A stretch of 64,000 bases of DNA from Vulcanimicrobiota bacterium (lineage in GTDB: Bacteria; Vulcanimicrobiota; Vulcanimicrobiia; Vulcanimicrobiales; Vulcanimicrobiaceae). The translations under genes and the position numbers were made by a program. The notes beneath the pieces are model-generated. The model ran no database searches, was not told the DNA's origin, and was given only the letters and a program-made list of their open reading frames with translations. Of the stretch, positions 35,338-43,468 are shown one piece after another; the stretch's first letter is position 1, and each line of letters begins with the position of its first letter. The stretch spans positions 186,001-250,000 of the forward strand of contig DAHUXH010000012.1 of assembly GCA_027307235.1 (NCBI GenBank), read 5' to 3'.

Positions 35338-36456
35338 GTGCAGTTCGGCCGGATCTTCGGCATCACCCTACGGATCGACTGGAGCTGGCTCATCGTCTTC
35401 GGACTGATGACCTGGTCGCTCTCCGGCGCTCCCGGACCATTCGCGCATCTTCCCGAGCGCACGCGCATCGTGACGGCGGCCATCGCAGTGCTGCTGCTTT
35501 TCGCATGCGTCATCGCGCACGAACTCGCCCATGCTTTGACTGCCCGGCGATTCGGCATCGACACGGCGAGCATCACGCTCTTCGTGTTCGGCGGCGTGTC
35601 GAGCCTCAGGTCGGAACCAAATTCACCGCGTGCTGAGGCGCTGATCTCGCTCGCGGGTCCGTTGACGAGCTTCGTCCTGGCGTTGATCTTCTTCGCCGTT
35701 GCGAGCGTCGTGCGCGTCGGCGACGCCGCCGCGACCGCGATGCTCTACCTGGCGTTCGTCAATGCACTCCTCGGCGCGTTCAATCTGCTTCCGGCTTATC
35801 CGCTCGACGGCAGTCACGTCTTCCATGCCATCGTGTGGCATGTCAACAAGAATCGCGCGCGAGCGACCGGATTCACCGCAGGCATGACGCGCGCGGTCGG
35901 CGGAGCCTTCGTTCTCTTTGGTATTCTGCAGCTCGCCGGCGGCTATCTGGTCTCCGGCGTGTGGCTCGAACTGCTGGCTTGGTTCATGCTGCGTGCCGGT
36001 CAAGCAGAATGGCAGTACGAGATGATCCTTCGCCCCATGCAGGCGATGCGCGTCGTCGACGTCGCCGACCCGGTCGGCGCATCATTGCCGCTGAAAGCAA
36101 ACTGCCAAGCCGCTCTCGACCGCATGATAGCGACGCAACACCGAGCCCTGCCCGTGGTCTCCAACGATGAATTGTCCGGCATGGTGACGCTAGCGGATTT
36201 CGCGAAGCTCGACGGGCGCGCATTGGACGACGCCGCCGTCACTTCGATCATGACACGCGCCGCCGATCTGGTCAGTGTCGCGGCGAGCGAACCGGCGTTC
36301 GCGGCATTTCAAAAACTCGCAAACTCATCGCACAGCCAACTGCCGGTCCTCGATGAGCATGCTCATCTGGTCGGCTTCGTCACACGTGACACCGTGATTC
36401 GCAGTCTGTTGTTCGCTCGCGAACAGCAGATGCTGGGGCCGATCTCCCGGCGCTAA
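35338..36456 (+). CDS. Site-2 metalloprotease (M50) with CBS domains
   Basis: A 372-residue intramembrane protease of the Rip3/SpoIVFB type. The zinc site is HELAH near residue 62 in the membrane helix AVLLLFACVIAHELAHALTA, and the second half-site is NLLPAYPLDGSH near residue 150. After about six helices come two CBS modules (PLKANCQAALDRMIATQHRALPVVS; EPAFAAFQKLANSSHSQLPVLDE), which in relatives sense nucleotides. It may release a membrane-bound regulator such as the anti-sigma factor upstream. It is convergent with the M56 operon across a terminator. Confidence 0.9.
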   Translation: MQFGRIFGITLRIDWSWLIVFGLMTWSLSGAPGPFAHLPERTRIVTAAIAVLLLFACVIAHELAHALTARRFGIDTASITLFVFGGVSSLRSEPNSPRAEALISLAGPLTSFVLALIFFAVASVVRVGDAAATAMLYLAFVNALLGAFNLLPAYPLDGSHVFHAIVWHVNKNRARATGFTAGMTRAVGGAFVLFGILQLAGGYLVSGVWLELLAWFMLRAGQAEWQYEMILRPMQAMRVVDVADPVGASLPLKANCQAALDRMIATQHRALPVVSNDELSGMVTLADFAKLDGRALDDAAVTSIMTRAADLVSVAASEPAFAAFQKLANSSHSQLPVLDEHAHLVGFVTRDTVIRSLLFAREQQMLGPISRR

Positions 36457-36477
36457 GCTCTAGGCTCCTAGCGCCGG
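36447..36477. terminator. Two-way terminator hairpin between convergent genes
   Basis: CCGGCGCTA (36447-36455) and TAGCGCCGG (36469-36477) are perfect inverted repeats. The hairpin includes the stop codon of the site-2 protease and reaches into the last codons of the small gene on the minus strand. A shorter CTAGG-CT-CCTAG palindrome lies inside it as an alternative fold. Confidence 0.65.
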
Positions 36478-36704
36478 ACCGCGTAGCGGACTTGCCCCGC
36501 CAGCCACTCGCACACGCTGCCGTCGCGCATCACGAACGATTCGCAGCCGTCGACGTCCGGGTTGAAATCTTCATTGGCGGCTTTCGTCGCCGGCCAGTTC
36601 ACCTCGGGGAACTGACGCGCCGCCGCGCGTGCTTTCATGTAGGAAAACTGCGGCGCCTTCACCAGGATGTTGAGCGCGTTCGCCAATTTCTGCGCGTCAG
36701 TCAT
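36468..36704 (-). CDS. Small protein, last gene of the BlaI-M56 operon
   Basis: A 78-residue soluble protein beginning MTDAQKLANALNILV. ATG 36704 was chosen over ATG 36710 because the strong Shine-Dalgarno GGAGGT (36714-36719) sits 9 bases from it and only 3 from the other. The ribosome-binding site and first codons overlap the 3' end of the M56 gene, so they are coupled. It contains two cysteines (DVDGCESF, SVCEWL). No family is recognised. Confidence 0.65.
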   Translation of the reverse strand: MTDAQKLANALNILVKAPQFSYMKARAAARQFPEVNWPATKAANEDFNPDVDGCESFVMRDGSVCEWLAGQVRYAVRR

Positions 36705-38334
36705 GGACATCGTACCTCCAAAGCGTTGATCCCACGTTGTAAAATCGCTGGCGTTGCGGGTCGAACGCGATCGTGCAGGTGATGGTTCTTCCGTTGGCAT
36801 CGAAGCCATCCCAAATCAGCACGTGTCCGTTGGGCAGCAAGCGTATGCCTTGACCGGCATGCTCGCCGCCGTCCATCCGTGCGCGAACGAAGCGCCGCGC
36901 GCGTGGGTCGAAAAATTCCGGCGTGTGCACGAACCGGTTGACGGCGTATTCGCCGCCGGTCAGGAAGACGCGGCCATCGCGCAACAGGATGGCGGAGTGC
37001 TGCGCGCGCGCGTACGTCATGCTCGTGACCTCTCGCACGCGGTGATCCTGCGGTGAGTAGATCAGCGCGTCGCGAGTCACGCCGCCACGCGTCCATCCGC
37101 CTGCGATCAAGACGGTGCCGTCGGCGAGTTGCGTTGCCGTGGCATCGGCGCGGGCGACCGGCATGCGCGCCGTCGCGATCACCCGTCCCGTTCGCGCATC
37201 GATCTCTTGGATAATCGGCAAGAACGTGCCGTCCGGCGTGCGGCCGCCGACAATCAACGTGGTGCCGCCGCGCAACGTCACGACCGTCGCCGCGGTCCGC
37301 GTCATCGCGCGCTGCGCGAGCGCGGGAACGGCCCAGGTCAGCAGCACGGCCAGCACGGCCACGAGCGCCCCGAACGGGATGCCCGTCACCAGTCCATTCC
37401 ACGAAGCGGCGCGCGCATCGTCATCAAGCAACTGGCGCAATCGCACCGCGGTGTGCGAGCCACTCCTCACTATGCCCACCGACAGCACCGGCGTGCGCGC
37501 CGCCGGTTGCTGCGCAAGCTGCCACAACAACTCAGCATAGCGGCGTGACGAACCGGTGGTCGCGACCGCCTCACGGTCGCAGGCGAGTTCACGTTCTAAC
37601 GACAGGCGCGTGCACACAAAGGCGAGCAAAGGATTGAACCAGAGTAACGCCGCGACGACGCGTTCGATGAGTTGCACCCAATCATCGCGACGGCCTATGT
37701 GCGCCAGTTCATGGCGGAGCAGACACGCGATGTCTTCAGACGACATAGACTCCAAGAGTGCCTGTGGCATCACGATTGCCGGATGCAGATATCCAAGCGC
37801 GATCGGTGTGGTCACGGCATCGGCGGACAGCAGCCGCACGTCGCGCGACAGAAGCGGCAGCACAACGTCGAGCGGCTTGGCGCGGCTCTTTAGCATCCGC
37901 ACGCCCCGAAGAGCGCGCGCGATGCAAAGGAGGCGCCACACCGCGATGGTCAGCCACACCACGACGGCCGGCACAGCAACCGCCGGAATCTGCAGCCGCT
38001 GCCGAACGCCTGCGATATCGGCCGTCGAGGTTGCGGACTGCTCACTCGTGCGCAATGCATCGGCACGGAACTGCGGTTCAACTGTCGGCGAGACGTGCCG
38101 CACCGCCGGAAGCGCCACCGTCGGCGGGGCGTTGAGCACGGCACGGCCGTACACGAAAGGCGTCGCAGCGGTCGCCATCAAGACGAACATCCAGCACCGG
38201 TAACGCGCGCCGGGCGCCGCTTTCGGCACCAGCGTCGTGACCGCCATTGCGGCAGCCACACCGAGCGAGGCCACTAGCACACTCGCCGCCAACCCGTACG
38301 CGAGTTGCGAGGTGACGGCAAACGGCTCGATCAC
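36697..38334 (-). CDS. BlaR1-like M56 protease with external Kelch-type domain
   Basis: A 545-residue membrane protein. Helices lie at about 12-34, 47-63, 118-139 and 314-340. Between the third and fourth is an M56 protease domain with HELAH at 208-212 and the third-ligand region ERELACDREAV at 248-258. Residues 350-545 carry at least four Kelch-like blade motifs (LIVGGR, LIAGGW, FLTGGE, LIWDGF) instead of BlaR1's penicillin-binding domain. The neighbouring BlaI repressor is the expected cleavage target. The signal sensed is unknown. It overlaps blaI by 4 bases. Confidence 0.88.
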   Translation of the reverse strand: MIEPFAVTSQLAYGLAASVLVASLGVAAAMAVTTLVPKAAPGARYRCWMFVLMATAATPFVYGRAVLNAPPTVALPAVRHVSPTVEPQFRADALRTSEQSATSTADIAGVRQRLQIPAVAVPAVVVWLTIAVWRLLCIARALRGVRMLKSRAKPLDVVLPLLSRDVRLLSADAVTTPIALGYLHPAIVMPQALLESMSSEDIACLLRHELAHIGRRDDWVQLIERVVAALLWFNPLLAFVCTRLSLERELACDREAVATTGSSRRYAELLWQLAQQPAARTPVLSVGIVRSGSHTAVRLRQLLDDDARAASWNGLVTGIPFGALVAVLAVLLTWAVPALAQRAMTRTAATVVTLRGGTTLIVGGRTPDGTFLPIIQEIDARTGRVIATARMPVARADATATQLADGTVLIAGGWTRGGVTRDALIYSPQDHRVREVTSMTYARAQHSAILLRDGRVFLTGGEYAVNRFVHTPEFFDPRARRFVRARMDGGEHAGQGIRLLPNGHVLIWDGFDANGRTITCTIAFDPQRQRFYNVGSTLWRYDVHD

Positions 38335-38711
38335 TTGCGTTTTCGGCTCTCCTCGAAAAGCGCACGAATGCTTGCGGCTTCCTGCGCCGTCATCTGCTTG
38401 GAATCGAGCAGTGCCGACACGAGGAGGCTCGGCGAGCTATCGAAGAACCGCGCGACGACGTCCGCGAGCGCGGTTTTTTGCGCCGCGCTCTGGGCGATCG
38501 TAGCGCGATACAGGAACGTTCGTCCCGCAACCGTGTGCTTCACCGCGCCTTTGCGTTCAAGGACGCCCAAGGTCGTGAGCACCGTGTTGCGTGCCAAGCG
38601 CGGTGTTTCGATGGCATCGACGATCTCGTTGACCGTCGCCTCGGCACGCGACCAAAGCACGCGCATGATGCGCAACTCGGCTTCGGTCAACGCAGCGGCG
38701 CGTTGCGCCAC
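38331..38711 (-). CDS. BlaI/MecI-family transcriptional repressor
   Basis: A 126-residue winged-helix repressor. The N-terminal domain (LTEAELRIMRVLWSRAEATVNEIVDAI ... ARNTVLTTLGVLERKGAVKHTVAGRTFLYRA) is the typical BlaI DNA-binding part, followed by a helical dimerisation region with the segment (VSALLDSKQMTAQEAASIRALFEE). In the family the partner M56 protease inactivates the repressor. It lies 1 base after the secreted-protein gene and overlaps the M56 gene by 4 bases. A likely operator is at 39564-39576. Confidence 0.93.
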   Translation of the reverse strand: MAQRAAALTEAELRIMRVLWSRAEATVNEIVDAIETPRLARNTVLTTLGVLERKGAVKHTVAGRTFLYRATIAQSAAQKTALADVVARFFDSSPSLLVSALLDSKQMTAQEAASIRALFEESRKRK

Positions 38712-38712
38712 G

Positions 38713-39495
38713 TTAGGTGTCGCCGGGAACGGCGTTGAGCAGCATAATCATGCGTTCTTTGGCGCGAAACGTGCGCCCGTCGCGAGTAGCCAAGATGACG
38801 TCACGCTCGCTCAATACGTCATCGCTGATGATGATACCGCTGCGAAAGGTGGTGTACCCACGCCAGTGGGTCGGGCCGGCGGAGGTGACGGAGACCGCAA
38901 CCTGCTTGCCGTTGATCAGAATCGACGTTCCTCTCGACTTCGACGACTTCTGGGCAGTAGCGCGCCCTTCGCGCATCAGCATCACCGTCGCGTGGTCCGG
39001 GTCGGCCTGCACGACCGTGACGGTCTGCACCCCCGCCGGTCCCATCTCCCAGTCCGTCGGTATCGTGACCGTCCATGTCTGACCCGCGCGCAGCCGGTCG
39101 GGCGGATTGCCCCACAAGAAGCGATTGAGTGCAAGTCCGCTTGCCTGGGTATCGGGCGTCACGTGACCCTTCACGATCGGCATCAGCGTTCGCACGTCCA
39201 AGCTGTATCCAGCGTTGGTTCCCGAGGCCAAGCCATCGTAGCGGTATGGCCCTGTGAAGTTCGCCCGTCCGTTGTGAACATCGGTCACCACATACGTCGC
39301 TGAACCCGCCACGCGGCGGACCTGTTCCCTAAAACCCGGTCCCCGGAACGAGTACATAAAGGAGAAAACGTTCGACAAATGCTCGCCGCGCGTGAACGTG
39401 TGGTGGAAGTAATCCGGTGCCGGTTGGGCTATAGCACGGACACCGCCGCAGAGCACGATCAGTGCGGCAAGGGCCAGCAACTTCAGACGATTCAT
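38713..39495 (-). CDS. Secreted protein, first gene of the BlaI-M56 operon
   Basis: A 260-residue exported protein with a signal peptide (MNRLKLLALAALIVLCGGVRAIA) and a beta-rich mature domain (FTRGEHLSNVFSFMYSFRGPGFREQV; LRAGQTWTVTIPTDWEMGPAGVQTVTVVQAD). No family is recognised. It is transcribed away from the MBL-fold gene at 39585 and leads into blaI, so it is probably a regulated target of the system. Confidence 0.75.
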   Translation of the reverse strand: MNRLKLLALAALIVLCGGVRAIAQPAPDYFHHTFTRGEHLSNVFSFMYSFRGPGFREQVRRVAGSATYVVTDVHNGRANFTGPYRYDGLASGTNAGYSLDVRTLMPIVKGHVTPDTQASGLALNRFLWGNPPDRLRAGQTWTVTIPTDWEMGPAGVQTVTVVQADPDHATVMLMREGRATAQKSSKSRGTSILINGKQVAVSVTSAGPTHWRGYTTFRSGIIISDDVLSERDVILATRDGRTFRAKERMIMLLNAVPGDT

Positions 39496-39548
39496 TGAGA
39501 CCTCCGGCTCGACGATTCACACCTATTATTTTAAGCCTATATTCATAG

Positions 39549-39578
39549 TTGACAATCGTTAGCCCTACTGTGTAGGCT
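39549..39578 (+). promoter_or_regulatory. Promoter of the MBL-fold gene, apparently leaderless
   Basis: TTGACA (39549-39554), an 18-base spacer and TAGGCT (39573-39578) place the expected transcription start about 7 bases downstream, on or next to the ATG at 39585. No ribosome-binding site precedes that ATG, so the mRNA may be leaderless. Confidence 0.55.
39564..39576. promoter_or_regulatory. Candidate BlaI operator
   Basis: CCTAC-TGT-GTAGG is a perfect inverted repeat with half-sites like the TAC/GTA dyads bound by BlaI and MecI repressors. It overlaps the -10 element of the promoter to the right and lies 69 bases upstream of the first gene of the blaI operon, so one bound repressor could control both directions. 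Confidence 0.55.
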
Positions 39579-39584
39579 CCTCAC

Positions 39585-41126
39585 ATGAAAAGCAGCAGAG
39601 TCCTCGGATGCCTCCTGATGTTCAGCCTACCGGCGGCCGGAGCGCAGGCGCAAGCCAGTGGTGCGGCGCGAGCCATCGTCGCTCGCGCGATCGCGGTCGT
39701 CGGCGTTCATCGCGACCTGCATTCGATGCGATCGCTGCAAATGTCCGAAAGAACGATCTCGTTTCACATCACCGACAGCGATCACGCCGATGCGCCATTT
39801 CTCGTCGCATTCGGCAACGCGACCGTGACGGACGACCTGCCCGGCCGTCGCGAATCGAGCACCAGCGTCTCGGTCCTTCCCGGGAATGACACGAACACGC
39901 CCGGGAAAGAGTCGCGTATCACAGGCACGCTGATTCTCACCCGCGACATCGCGCAATACGCCGTTTCGCGCGACAACGATCCGCCGTCGACGAACGCGCT
40001 CGCAGTGCCGCCGACGTGGGAGACGAGTAATCCTGTGCAAGCATTGCTGATCGCCGCAGCCGCTCCCGACCTCACGCAGGAACCGGACGCCATAAGCCAC
40101 GATGCGCCGCAACACGTCGTCAGCTTCACGAACGACGGCTACCGCGTGCGGTTGTTCATCAATGCAGATACGGACCTTCCGAGCGCGGTTGAAGCGACCG
40201 TCGATTATCGCGGAGAGATTGCCTGGAATGCGTGGGGCGACGTCGTCGAACGCACTGAGTATCAGAATTGGACGCTCGTCGACGGTATTCGTTACCCGTT
40301 TCAATGGGATATCACGCGCAACGGCGACATTTATAAGACGATCGCGCTCTCGCAAGTGCATGCCGACGTGCCGCTTGCGGCCGACGCTTTTGCTATTGCC
40401 GCGACGACACGCAAGGATGCGGACACCCCCGGAATCGCCGCTGCCGACGACATTCCGCTCGGCACTCCGGGCCGGCCGATCAGCGAAATCGCACCTGGCA
40501 TCGTGCAAATACCGGGATCTTGGTACACGACGCTCGTGCGGCAGAATGACGGGATCGTTATCATCGACGCTCCGATCTCGGCTGGATATTCGCAGCGGGT
40601 GATCGCCGAGGTGCAACGCCGCTTCCCGGGTGTGCCGATCAAAGCACTCATCACGTCAACCGGATACTTCTGGCACATTGCCGGCGTCCGCGAATATGCG
40701 GCTCGCGGAATACCGATCTACGTGTTGGATCACAATGCGCCGACGGTTCATCGCTTGTTGAGCGCACCGCATACCATCGTCCCCGACGACCTGGCGAAGA
40801 GCGGCCGGCAACCCGACATTCGCATCGTCTCTGATCGCACGGTGATCGGCAGCGGGCACAATCAACTGGTAGTACTTCCGATCCGCCGCGCCAGCGGAAA
40901 CATGTTGATGACCTACATTCCCGACGCGAAACTCGCTCACACTGCGGAGATGGCGCAACCGCTCGGTCCCAACGGTTCGTTCCTCTTCCCCGAATCGCTG
41001 CTCGAACTCAAGGAAGCGATTCGCGACGCGCACATCACTGTCAGCACGATCATCGGCATGCATATGAGCCCCACGCCCTGGTCGAAGGTCGAAGACACAC
41101 TCCGCGCCGCTTCCCCGCAGCCATGA
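39585..41126 (+). CDS. Secreted metallo-beta-lactamase-fold protein lacking the metal motif
   Basis: A 513-residue protein with a signal peptide (MKSSRVLGCLLMFSLPAAGAQA), a 250-residue beta-rich N-terminal part, and a C-terminal metallo-beta-lactamase fold. At the HxHxDH site it reads TGYFWH (359-364): both first histidines and the Asp are lost and only the last His stays. Later positions (GSGHNQL, YIPDAKLAHTAE, GMHMSP) keep His/Asp-like residues. It is divergent from the blaI operon and likely controlled by the same operator. Hydrolase activity is doubtful; a binding role is possible. Confidence 0.8.
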   Translation: MKSSRVLGCLLMFSLPAAGAQAQASGAARAIVARAIAVVGVHRDLHSMRSLQMSERTISFHITDSDHADAPFLVAFGNATVTDDLPGRRESSTSVSVLPGNDTNTPGKESRITGTLILTRDIAQYAVSRDNDPPSTNALAVPPTWETSNPVQALLIAAAAPDLTQEPDAISHDAPQHVVSFTNDGYRVRLFINADTDLPSAVEATVDYRGEIAWNAWGDVVERTEYQNWTLVDGIRYPFQWDITRNGDIYKTIALSQVHADVPLAADAFAIAATTRKDADTPGIAAADDIPLGTPGRPISEIAPGIVQIPGSWYTTLVRQNDGIVIIDAPISAGYSQRVIAEVQRRFPGVPIKALITSTGYFWHIAGVREYAARGIPIYVLDHNAPTVHRLLSAPHTIVPDDLAKSGRQPDIRIVSDRTVIGSGHNQLVVLPIRRASGNMLMTYIPDAKLAHTAEMAQPLGPNGSFLFPESLLELKEAIRDAHITVSTIIGMHMSPTPWSKVEDTLRAASPQP

Positions 41127-41281
41127 AAGCGCAGGAGGGCATGCCTCACGCCGCGTAGGGTGCCCGACGAAGCCTTGCACGGGTGTGGTTGTTTCACGGC
41201 TTCTCTGACCATCTGACCAGCAAGGTGTTCGATTTCCACACGCAGGGAGCAGTGTCTCCCGAGATCATGGAGAGTGAACAC

Positions 41282-42211
41282 ATGTCCACAGGCACGATTC
41301 AATTTTACGGGAGCGGCCTCTTTCAGGACGCCTATCCCAATCCGACGGTGCCCTACGCCACCCAACTCGCGCAGATCCAAAAATCACCGTTCAACCGCTG
41401 CGTCCTTTGGGCGCTGCACGTTCAGACGAACGGAGATTTCTATTACAACGATACGCCGATGGTGCAGAACGGCAAGTTCGTCACGAGTACCGATCCCACG
41501 AAAGGGGTCAACCCGGATCTCGCGAGCCTGCTTTCGCAAGTGAAGAGCGGCGGGAACGTCGGCAAGATTTTGTTCAGCATTGGGCCGTTCCAAAGCGATT
41601 TCGATCACATCGTCGCCAACCTTGCGAGTGCCAGGGCAAACTTCGCCGCACTCAAGGCAGCGCTGCCGATCGACGGCATCGATTTTGATTACGAGGGTAA
41701 TTACGGCGACCAAGACGCAACCAACCTCGCGAATCTCACAACGCTTCTTTACAAGGACCTCGGCCTCGAGGTGACCTACTGCCCGTACACCTACGAGAGT
41801 TTCTGGCTGTCCTGTCTCGCGCAGGTCTACCAAAAGAACAAGAACGTGCAACTCGTCAGCGCGTTCAATTTGCAGTGCTACGACGGTGGAACGGGGAACG
41901 ACCCGGCACAGTGGGCAGCGGAGATTTCGAGCTACGGCTCGCCGCTCGGGATCGCGGACCCCATCACATTCATCTTCCCCGGCTTCTGGGTTGCGCATGC
42001 CGGCGCAAAATCTGGAATGGGTCAGTGCCCAAGCGAGATGCAGTCGACATTCACAGCGCTGCAACCTGAAGGTGTCGTCGGAGGGTGGGTCTGGAATTCG
42101 GGCGACATCTTCAACAACGAATCGGCCGCATTATGTCCAAATCAGGACGTGACGCCGAACGGTTATGCTTCGGCAATCGCAAACGGCCTCGGATTGCTCG
42201 CGAACCGTTAG
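41282..42211 (+). CDS. GH18-like glycoside hydrolase without signal peptide
   Basis: ATG 41282, with GGAGAG 7-8 bases upstream, gives 309 residues; the frame is open to 41183. The barrel signature DGIDFDYE (131-138) matches the family 18 DxxDxDxE motif with Glu138 as the acid. VGKILFSIGPF, LVSAFNLQCYDGG and GVVGGWVWNSGD are consistent barrel strands. GH18 enzymes cut chitin or peptidoglycan-type GlcNAc links. No export signal is visible, so it is either cytoplasmic or uses another route. Confidence 0.78.
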   Translation: MSTGTIQFYGSGLFQDAYPNPTVPYATQLAQIQKSPFNRCVLWALHVQTNGDFYYNDTPMVQNGKFVTSTDPTKGVNPDLASLLSQVKSGGNVGKILFSIGPFQSDFDHIVANLASARANFAALKAALPIDGIDFDYEGNYGDQDATNLANLTTLLYKDLGLEVTYCPYTYESFWLSCLAQVYQKNKNVQLVSAFNLQCYDGGTGNDPAQWAAEISSYGSPLGIADPITFIFPGFWVAHAGAKSGMGQCPSEMQSTFTALQPEGVVGGWVWNSGDIFNNESAALCPNQDVTPNGYASAIANGLGLLANR

Positions 42212-42310: not shown

Positions 42311-43468
42311 CTACTCCACCGCATCGACGATACGAATTATGTCAGCACACAGGTACAGGTGCTGTTTACCGCTATCTCTGTACCGTTCGATGATGCCGAA
42401 TTCCACGAGTTTCAAAACTGTATCGCGCGACGATTGCCAGGAGAAACCCAACACGTTCTCGGCGATTGCATAGGTCATTACGGGGAGCCTGAACAGTTCA
42501 TCGGCAAGCCGCAAGGGTGCGGCCGTTACACGTGCCTCGGTTAATTTCTTACGGTATTGCTCACGTAGTTCTTGTAGTTGTTTGGTGCGTTGCACCGCGT
42601 CACGCGCTTGTAGCGCGATGCCGCGCAGGAAGAACAGTATCCACGGCTCCCACTGCCCGTCCTTGCTGATGTTGAGCATGAGATCGTTGTATTGCTGCCG
42701 CCGACGTTCAAAGTATGCGCTCAAATAAAGCATCGGCACGGCAAGCCGTTTCTCGGCGCATAACATGAGCGTGATGAGTAATCGCCCGATGCGTCCGTTA
42801 CCGTCGAGGAATGGATGGATCGCCTCGAACTGATAGTGCACCAGCGCAAGGCGCACGATCAACGGCAGCCGATCCGGCTTTTGGATGTACTGGCCCAGCG
42901 CATCGAACGCCTCATCGAGGAAATACGGCGGCGGCGGAACGTAACGCGCTTCGGCGATGCCCAAACCGTGCGGACCGATGTACACCTGCGTCTTACGAAA
43001 TTGGCCGGGGTGCGTATTCTCCTCGTCGATTCCTGCGAGTAGTTTCTTGTGAACCTCGCAGAGCAATCGTTTGCCGATCGGAATGTCTCCACAGCGCGCG
43101 AGCGCGTACTGAAGTGCGGCGACATAGTTTGACACTTCCCGGTTGTCACGCTCGCGTTCAGACTTCTCGAACTGCGCCGCCTCAAAAAGCACGAGATCGG
43201 AGAACGTCGTCTGGGTTCCCTCGATGCGGCTTGATAGCACTGCTTCCTTACGCAAGAACGGCGCGATGAGCAACTGAGGATCGGGGAGGTTTTGGCCATG
43301 ACCATCCAGCCGACCTAATTCCGTTGTCGCTTCATCGAGCGCGAGAATCACATCGGGAGACAGCACGAAATTAGCGAGCGGCAGCGGCTTGGGCAAGAAA
43401 GCAACCCCGCCCTCGGTGATGCGCACAAGTTCTCCGGTCATCCGGTTAGTAAATGACCACGGCTCCAT
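42311..43468 (-). CDS. Fic-domain protein (AMP transferase) with inhibitory helix
   Basis: A 385-residue protein. The Fic active-site motif HPFLDGNGRIGR (218-229) is intact, so it should transfer AMP (or another nucleotide part) to protein hydroxyls. The N-terminal inhibitory motif SSRIEG (79-84) follows the (S/T)xxxE(G/N) pattern of self-inhibited class II Fic proteins, and the C-terminal 90 residues form a winged-helix-like domain (LADELFRLPVMTYAIAENVLGFS). The start ATG lies within repeated CCTAGG elements. It stands alone next to integrase and tRNA-Sec. Confidence 0.93.
   Translation of the reverse strand: MEPWSFTNRMTGELVRITEGGVAFLPKPLPLANFVLSPDVILALDEATTELGRLDGHGQNLPDPQLLIAPFLRKEAVLSSRIEGTQTTFSDLVLFEAAQFEKSERERDNREVSNYVAALQYALARCGDIPIGKRLLCEVHKKLLAGIDEENTHPGQFRKTQVYIGPHGLGIAEARYVPPPPYFLDEAFDALGQYIQKPDRLPLIVRLALVHYQFEAIHPFLDGNGRIGRLLITLMLCAEKRLAVPMLYLSAYFERRRQQYNDLMLNISKDGQWEPWILFFLRGIALQARDAVQRTKQLQELREQYRKKLTEARVTAAPLRLADELFRLPVMTYAIAENVLGFSWQSSRDTVLKLVEFGIIERYRDSGKQHLYLCADIIRIVDAVE

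What the first reader, a model, noticed from the sequence alone, without database searches (positions are those of the whole stretch)
36468..41126. BlaI-M56 signalling cassette with a Kelch-type sensor
The M56 protease is paired with a BlaI repressor but carries four Kelch-like blades outside the membrane instead of a penicillin-binding domain. The cassette also includes a secreted protein, an 78-residue coupled protein and a divergent MBL-fold protein. BlaI-M56 pairs are known to respond to beta-lactams. A propeller sensor suggests a different ligand, perhaps a cell-wall fragment or sugar. I do not know this arrangement as described.
Basis: partly seen in the sequence, partly recalled or inferred. 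Interest (0 to 1): 0.82.

Follow-up and report, generated by a model that had tools for sequence, protein, structure and literature searches.

The report
BlaI-BlaR1-type switch with Kelch sensor
An uncultured bacterium carries a membrane protease and repressor pair of the type that senses penicillin, but with a four-bladed Kelch domain in place of the penicillin-binding part, so it probably reads a different signal; what that signal is remains unknown.

Summary
The core observation is confirmed. A BlaI repressor (38331-38711, -) overlaps by 4 nt an M56/BlaR1 metalloprotease (36697-38334, -). The protease has a complete BlaR1-type active site and ends in four Kelch blades after its last transmembrane helix, with no penicillin-binding domain. 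Two relatives in other genera of Candidatus Eremiobacterota carry the same BlaI-M56-Kelch pair; one is cut off at a contig end. The three form one clade (support 100/99).

The five-gene cassette is not conserved: only BlaI and M56-Kelch recur. The 78-residue gene is a common gene of the class (71 of 117 genomes) found away from M56. A family-wide BlaI site, CTAA-N4-TTAG, occurs upstream of BlaI genes in Eremiobacterota and Acidobacteriota; its local version, CTATATTCATAG, lies at 39537-39548, inside the leftward promoter and against the -35 box of the divergent MBL-like gene.

Best explanation: an outside signal read by the Kelch domain makes the protease cleave BlaI and frees both divergent promoters. 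Anatomy and operator rest on sequence; signal, cleavage and output are inferred. Swapped ectodomains are common here (pentapeptide repeats in 23 of 34 M56 proteins), so this is a new variant of a known kind.

The parts
38331..38711 (-). BlaI-family repressor, 126 aa
   Evidence: Penicillinase_R 1e-28; helix motif ARNTVxTTLGVLE shared only with the BlaIs of the two other Kelch systems among those compared
36697..38334 (-). BlaR1-type M56 metalloprotease with C-terminal Kelch domain, 545 aa; overlaps the BlaI gene by 4 nt
   Evidence: Peptidase_M56 5.2e-34, Kelch_4 8e-12; H208, E209, H212, E249, D253, Y266, R298 invariant in an alignment of 22; profile matches BlaR1 8exs at 3.9e-21
36697..37317 (-). 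Kelch ectodomain (protein residues 340-545), four blades
   Evidence: AlphaFold2 pLDDT 81, pTM 0.81; Foldseek TM 0.78 by query length to six-bladed Kelch structures
39537..39548 (.). proposed BlaI operator CTATATTCATAG
   Evidence: variant of the family dyad CTAA-N4-TTAG; with the adjacent TTGACA, one of only two perfect matches in the genome, both next to BlaI genes; same variant at the G020 Kelch locus
39549..39554 (+). TTGACA, likely -35 box of the divergent MBL-like gene, touching the operator; its -10 is weak
   Evidence: sequence; TTAGTTGACA is recurrent at BlaI promoters of the class
39528..39555 (-). likely promoter of the leftward operon: -35 TTGTCA (39555-39550), -10 TAAAAT (39533-39528), 16-bp spacer that holds the operator
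   Evidence: sequence; an operator-like dyad also lies in the promoter spacer at L045 and L033
38713..39495 (-). 260-aa protein with a signal-like N terminus, first gene of the leftward operon, family unknown
   Evidence: no Pfam or NCBIfam hit; remote relatives in two other genomes of the class, whose fetched flanks hold no M56 or BlaI
39585..41126 (+). 513-aa exported-looking protein with a degenerate MBL-type C-terminal half; likely second target of the operator
   Evidence: weak class B core match 1.6e-6; relatives in 3 other genomes and 3 further places in this genome; HxHxDH replaced
36468..36704 (-). 78-aa gene overlapping the M56 end; not counted as part of the system
   Evidence: relatives in 71 of 117 genomes, up to 81% identical; no M56 or BlaI in the 15 loci inspected

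Best explanation
This is a BlaI/BlaR1-type proteolytic signalling pair whose outside sensor is a four-bladed Kelch domain. Without signal, BlaI sits on CTATATTCATAG (39537-39548) between the divergent promoters and represses both its own operon (260-aa protein, BlaI, M56-Kelch) and the MBL-like gene. A ligand or protein partner outside the membrane binds the Kelch domain; the change passes through the last transmembrane helix to the cytoplasmic zinc protease, which cleaves BlaI and frees both promoters. Shown from sequence: domain content, intact active-site residues, predicted topology, family-type operator placement, recurrence in three genera. Inferred: binding, cleavage, direction of regulation, nature of the signal, and the function of the output proteins.
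For: Domains. Residues described as functional in S. aureus BlaR1 (H201, H205, E242, D246, Y261, R294; PMC9834060) correspond by position and motif to H208, H212, E249, D253, Y266, R298, invariant in an alignment of 22; a profile of that alignment matches BlaR1 at 3.9e-21. Predicted helices with a long loop at about 70-119, a last helix at 315-343 and then Kelch. Three Kelch systems form one clade on BlaI+M56, 100/99. Operator: CTAA-N4-TTAG in 19 of 48 Eremiobacterota and 36 of 69 other BlaI upstream regions, against 0.2 and 0.0 expected; in this genome the two perfect matches of the extended pattern lie at its two BlaI genes over the Pfam cut-off. Operator-like dyads lie in the promoter spacer here and at both relatives.
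Against: Nothing was measured. The BlaI cleavage site of S. aureus (N101-F102) aligns, through MecI, to A-L here, so cleavage is not certain. Four blades superpose on part of a six-bladed ring, so how the propeller closes is unknown. The -10 of the rightward promoter is weak. At up to 2 mismatches the reversed-pattern control gives about as many sites as the real pattern, so only the perfect sites carry weight. Neighbouring genes differ between the three systems.
Confidence: 0.72

Rival explanations
1. The system still responds to beta-lactams or cell-wall damage, directly or through a partner, and the Kelch domain is only a scaffold; the MBL-like protein or a nearby beta-lactamase is the resistance output.
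For: In relative G073 a class A beta-lactamase-like gene (Beta-lactamase2 2.7e-51) lies about 2 kb downstream of the Kelch-M56 gene. The divergent gene here is distantly MBL-like.
Against: No penicillin-binding domain. The MBL-like protein lacks the HxHxDH motif. In G073 an oppositely oriented peptidase gene lies between, and no operator-like site was found next to the beta-lactamase.
Confidence: 0.15
2. The Kelch domain senses a protein partner, such as the 260-aa protein made by the same operon, rather than a small ligand. It is a variant of the best explanation and not exclusive of it.
For: The 260-aa gene is first in the operon and has a signal-like N terminus. Solved Kelch domains that match best include peptide-binding ones, such as KLHL12, KEAP1 and KLHL3.
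Against: The class search for the 260-aa protein lists no match in G073 or G020, the two other Kelch genomes, so it cannot be the general partner.
Confidence: 0.2
3. The pair is decayed or non-signalling: an incomplete four-blade propeller with no ligand, kept by chance.
For: Four blades match only part of a six-bladed ring; the architecture was seen in only three of 149 genomes of the phylum.
Against: The Kelch region is kept in G073 at 34% identity; catalytic residues and operator layout are conserved in three genera.
Confidence: 0.06

Closest known systems
Staphylococcus aureus BlaR1-BlaI (also MecR1-MecI)
   Same: Membrane M56 protease with the same active-site residues and similar predicted topology, encoded next to a BlaI repressor
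   Different: Sensor is a Kelch domain, not a penicillin-binding domain related to class D beta-lactamases; no established resistance gene under its control
M56 proteins with pentapeptide-repeat C termini in the same class of Candidatus Eremiobacterota, including the second pair in this genome
   Same: M56 core next to BlaI, operator of the same family
   Different: Pentapeptide repeats instead of Kelch; mostly CTAA-N4-TTAG operators instead of CTAT-N4-ATAG; BlaI helix mostly AYNTVLTTxRILE or AYNSVLTTxRILE instead of ARNTVxTTLGVLE
Kelch propellers (KLHL12, KEAP1, galactose oxidase, SAKe designs)
   Same: Blade sequence motif and fold
   Different: Four blades rather than the six of KLHL12, KEAP1 and the SAKe6 designs; joined to a membrane protease

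Membership tests
BlaI (Penicillinase_R) repressors | Penicillinase_R domain over nearly the whole protein | tested here: met
   residues 8-120, 1e-28, above the curated cut-off
BlaI (Penicillinase_R) repressors | binding to a dyad at its own promoter | not testable with these tools
   site predicted at 39537-39548; binding not measured
M56/BlaR1 peptidases | HEXXH...E zinc site and surrounding conserved residues | tested here: met
   H208, E209, H212, E249, D253, Y266, R298 invariant; Pfam 5.2e-34; BlaR1 8exs 3.9e-21
BlaR1 beta-lactam sensors | C-terminal penicillin-binding sensor domain | tested here: not met
   no such Pfam domain, Kelch instead; NCBIfam BlaR1 and MecR1 models match only the N-terminal part, far below cut-off
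BlaR1 beta-lactam sensors | cleavage of BlaI | not testable with these tools
   needs a biochemical assay
Kelch propeller | Kelch blades with Kelch fold | tested here: met
   Kelch_4 8e-12; model pTM 0.81; Foldseek 8.1e-13 to a Kelch-type design
Kelch propeller | closed ring | tested here: inconclusive
   four blades superpose on part of a six-bladed ring; closure of the model was not measured
Metallo-beta-lactamases (513-aa protein) | HxHxDH metal motif | tested here: not met
   TSTGYFWH at that place; two relatives have TTSDSWPH

The most novel reading that the evidence does not exclude
A branch of BlaI/BlaR1-type switches that senses a non-beta-lactam signal through a four-bladed Kelch arc, possibly completed across a domain-swapped dimer, with a changed BlaI recognition helix matched to a changed operator.
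Probability: 0.4. Interest if true: 0.7.

Novelty: new variant of a known kind. Interest (0 to 1): 0.55.

Why it matters
BlaR1-type proteases are known mainly as penicillin sensors. Here the same protease and repressor core carries a different outside domain, and the survey suggests that exchange of outside domains is common in this phylum (pentapeptide repeats, TonB C-terminal domains, Kelch). If signalling is confirmed, M56-BlaI is a general way to carry outside signals to genes by cutting a repressor. The operator found here gives a direct handle for finding regulated genes in Eremiobacterota and Acidobacteriota.

Tried and rejected
Five-gene cassette: rejected, because the 78-aa, 260-aa and MBL-like genes were not found next to M56 in other genomes. 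Operator at 39564-39576: rejected as unremarkable and not of the family type. TAC-type dyads upstream of BlaI genes: of the patterns tried only CTAC-N4-GTAG came out above expectation, 3 seen against 0.4. M56-only tree: the window was represented there by a truncated copy that joined long branches; replaced by a BlaI+M56 tree. The operator variant elsewhere in the class: four of six exact sites are not near BlaI or M56 in the fetched flanks and may be chance. Literature searches for BlaR1 with M56 and Kelch, and for peptidase M56 with Kelch, found no paper in the held library.

Full report
What is there. On the minus strand, a 260-aa ORF (38713-39495), a BlaI repressor (38331-38711) and an M56 protease (36697-38334) lie in series, the last two overlapping by 4 nt. 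Pfam gives Penicillinase_R 1e-28 for BlaI, Peptidase_M56 5.2e-34 for residues 17-298 of the protease, and Kelch motifs in its C-terminal part, Kelch_4 8e-12 and Kelch_6 7e-12. A sequence search of solved structures links residues 338-536 to Kelch domains and 153-270 to BlaR1. The divergent ORF at 39585-41126 (+) matches only a class B beta-lactamase core model, at 1.6e-6 and below its cut-off. It has no PDB match at E 0.1, and its usual metal motif is replaced.

Protease and topology. H208, E209, H212, E249, D253, Y266 and R298 are invariant in an alignment of 22 sequences. They correspond to residues described as functional in S. aureus BlaR1 (PMC9834060, passages read; the correspondence is mine, by position and motif). 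A profile of that alignment matches BlaR1 8exs at 3.9e-21. The AlphaFold2 model (mean pLDDT 69) has helices at 3-35, 41-68, 120-151 and 315-343 around the protease core, a long low-confidence loop at 70-115, and the Kelch domain after the last helix. By analogy with BlaR1 this places the Kelch domain outside.

Kelch domain. The domain alone is predicted with pLDDT 81 and pTM 0.81; DSSP lists 17 short strand segments, which I read as four blades of four strands with one strand split. It superposes on about 190 residues of six-bladed Kelch structures with TM 0.78 by query length, so the model looks like four consecutive blades of a larger ring. Whether the ring closes alone, stays open, or is completed in a dimer is not known. 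By eye the G073 relative also has four blades, plus a short C-terminal extension.

Distribution. Among 149 genomes of the phylum, a profile of two Kelch-M56 proteins leads to this genome, G073 and G020; the G020 copy ends near a contig edge, with the start of a Kelch repeat visible. Record titles of the two relatives name Candidatus Eremiobacterota. No other M56 ORF in the fetched loci matched a two-sequence Kelch profile. Of 34 M56 proteins scanned, 23 carry pentapeptide repeats, 4 TonB_C, 2 DUF4097 and 2 Kelch_4. A BlaI+M56 tree joins the three Kelch systems with 100/99 support, although the window's branch is long.

Cassette. The 78-aa gene has relatives in 71 of 117 genomes of the class, and none of 15 inspected loci holds M56 or BlaI. 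The 260-aa protein has remote relatives in G043 and G019, and the MBL-like protein in G020, G081 and G058; the flanks fetched for these five hold no M56 or BlaI. In G020 the MBL relative lies on a short contig apart from the Kelch-M56 contig, so linkage there cannot be judged. In G020 the gene before BlaI is a 434-aa ORF without a Pfam match; in G073 the 227-aa ORF before BlaI is divergent and has no Pfam match. The conserved unit is BlaI plus M56-Kelch.

Operator. A dyad count over BlaI upstream regions found CTAA-N4-TTAG in 19 of 48 Eremiobacterota regions (0.2 expected) and 36 of 69 others (0.0 expected), often followed by TTGACA in the former. The window site is CTATATTCATAG at 39537-39548, followed by TTGACA. 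In this genome the pattern CTAWNNNNWTAGTTGACA has two perfect matches: this one and C10:221568, just upstream of the other BlaI gene that passes the Pfam cut-off. At up to two mismatches the reversed control gives about as many sites, so only the perfect matches are informative. G020 has CTATATTTATAG in a promoter spacer before the 434-aa ORF; G073 has CTACAAATATAG and CTAAATTTGTAG at its BlaI promoter. The BlaI helix motif of the three Kelch systems (ARNTVxTTLGVLE) differs from the AYNTVLTTxRILE and AYNSVLTTxRILE types of most others. A link between helix change and operator change is plausible but untested.

Mechanism. The best reading is a repressor released by proteolysis, as in BlaR1-BlaI, with the signal read by the Kelch domain. 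The signal is unknown. The class A beta-lactamase-like gene near the G073 pair keeps a beta-lactam link possible, but an oppositely oriented gene lies between and no operator-like site was found beside it.

Limits. The genome-contig scan used two narrow peptide patterns, so the architecture may be more widespread than seen. No paper on M56 with Kelch was found in the held library, which lacks most papers of subscription journals. Nothing here was measured in the laboratory.

Noticed in passing
G000:C10:221671-223136 (L001, L043): Second BlaI-M56 pair of this genome, with pentapeptide-like repeats at the M56 C terminus and a canonical operator CTAAGAAATTAG before BlaI.
   Followed up: partly
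G000:C2:21037-26244 (L061, L060, L062): Three places related to the 513-aa MBL-like protein; two share one open frame of 1029 codons, as if fused in tandem.
   Followed up: no
L033:12902-13804: Class A beta-lactamase-like gene (Beta-lactamase2 2.7e-51) about 2 kb from the Kelch-M56 gene of G073.
   Followed up: partly
window 35338-36456: M50-family protease with CBS domains, convergent with the 78-aa gene.
   Followed up: no
window 41183-42211 and 42311-43468: Weak GH18-like protein (below the Pfam cut-off) and a Fic-domain protein beyond the MBL-like gene.
   Followed up: no
L013, L015, L050, L194: Several BlaI upstream regions of the class hold two dyads 45 bp apart, suggesting paired operators.
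   Followed up: no
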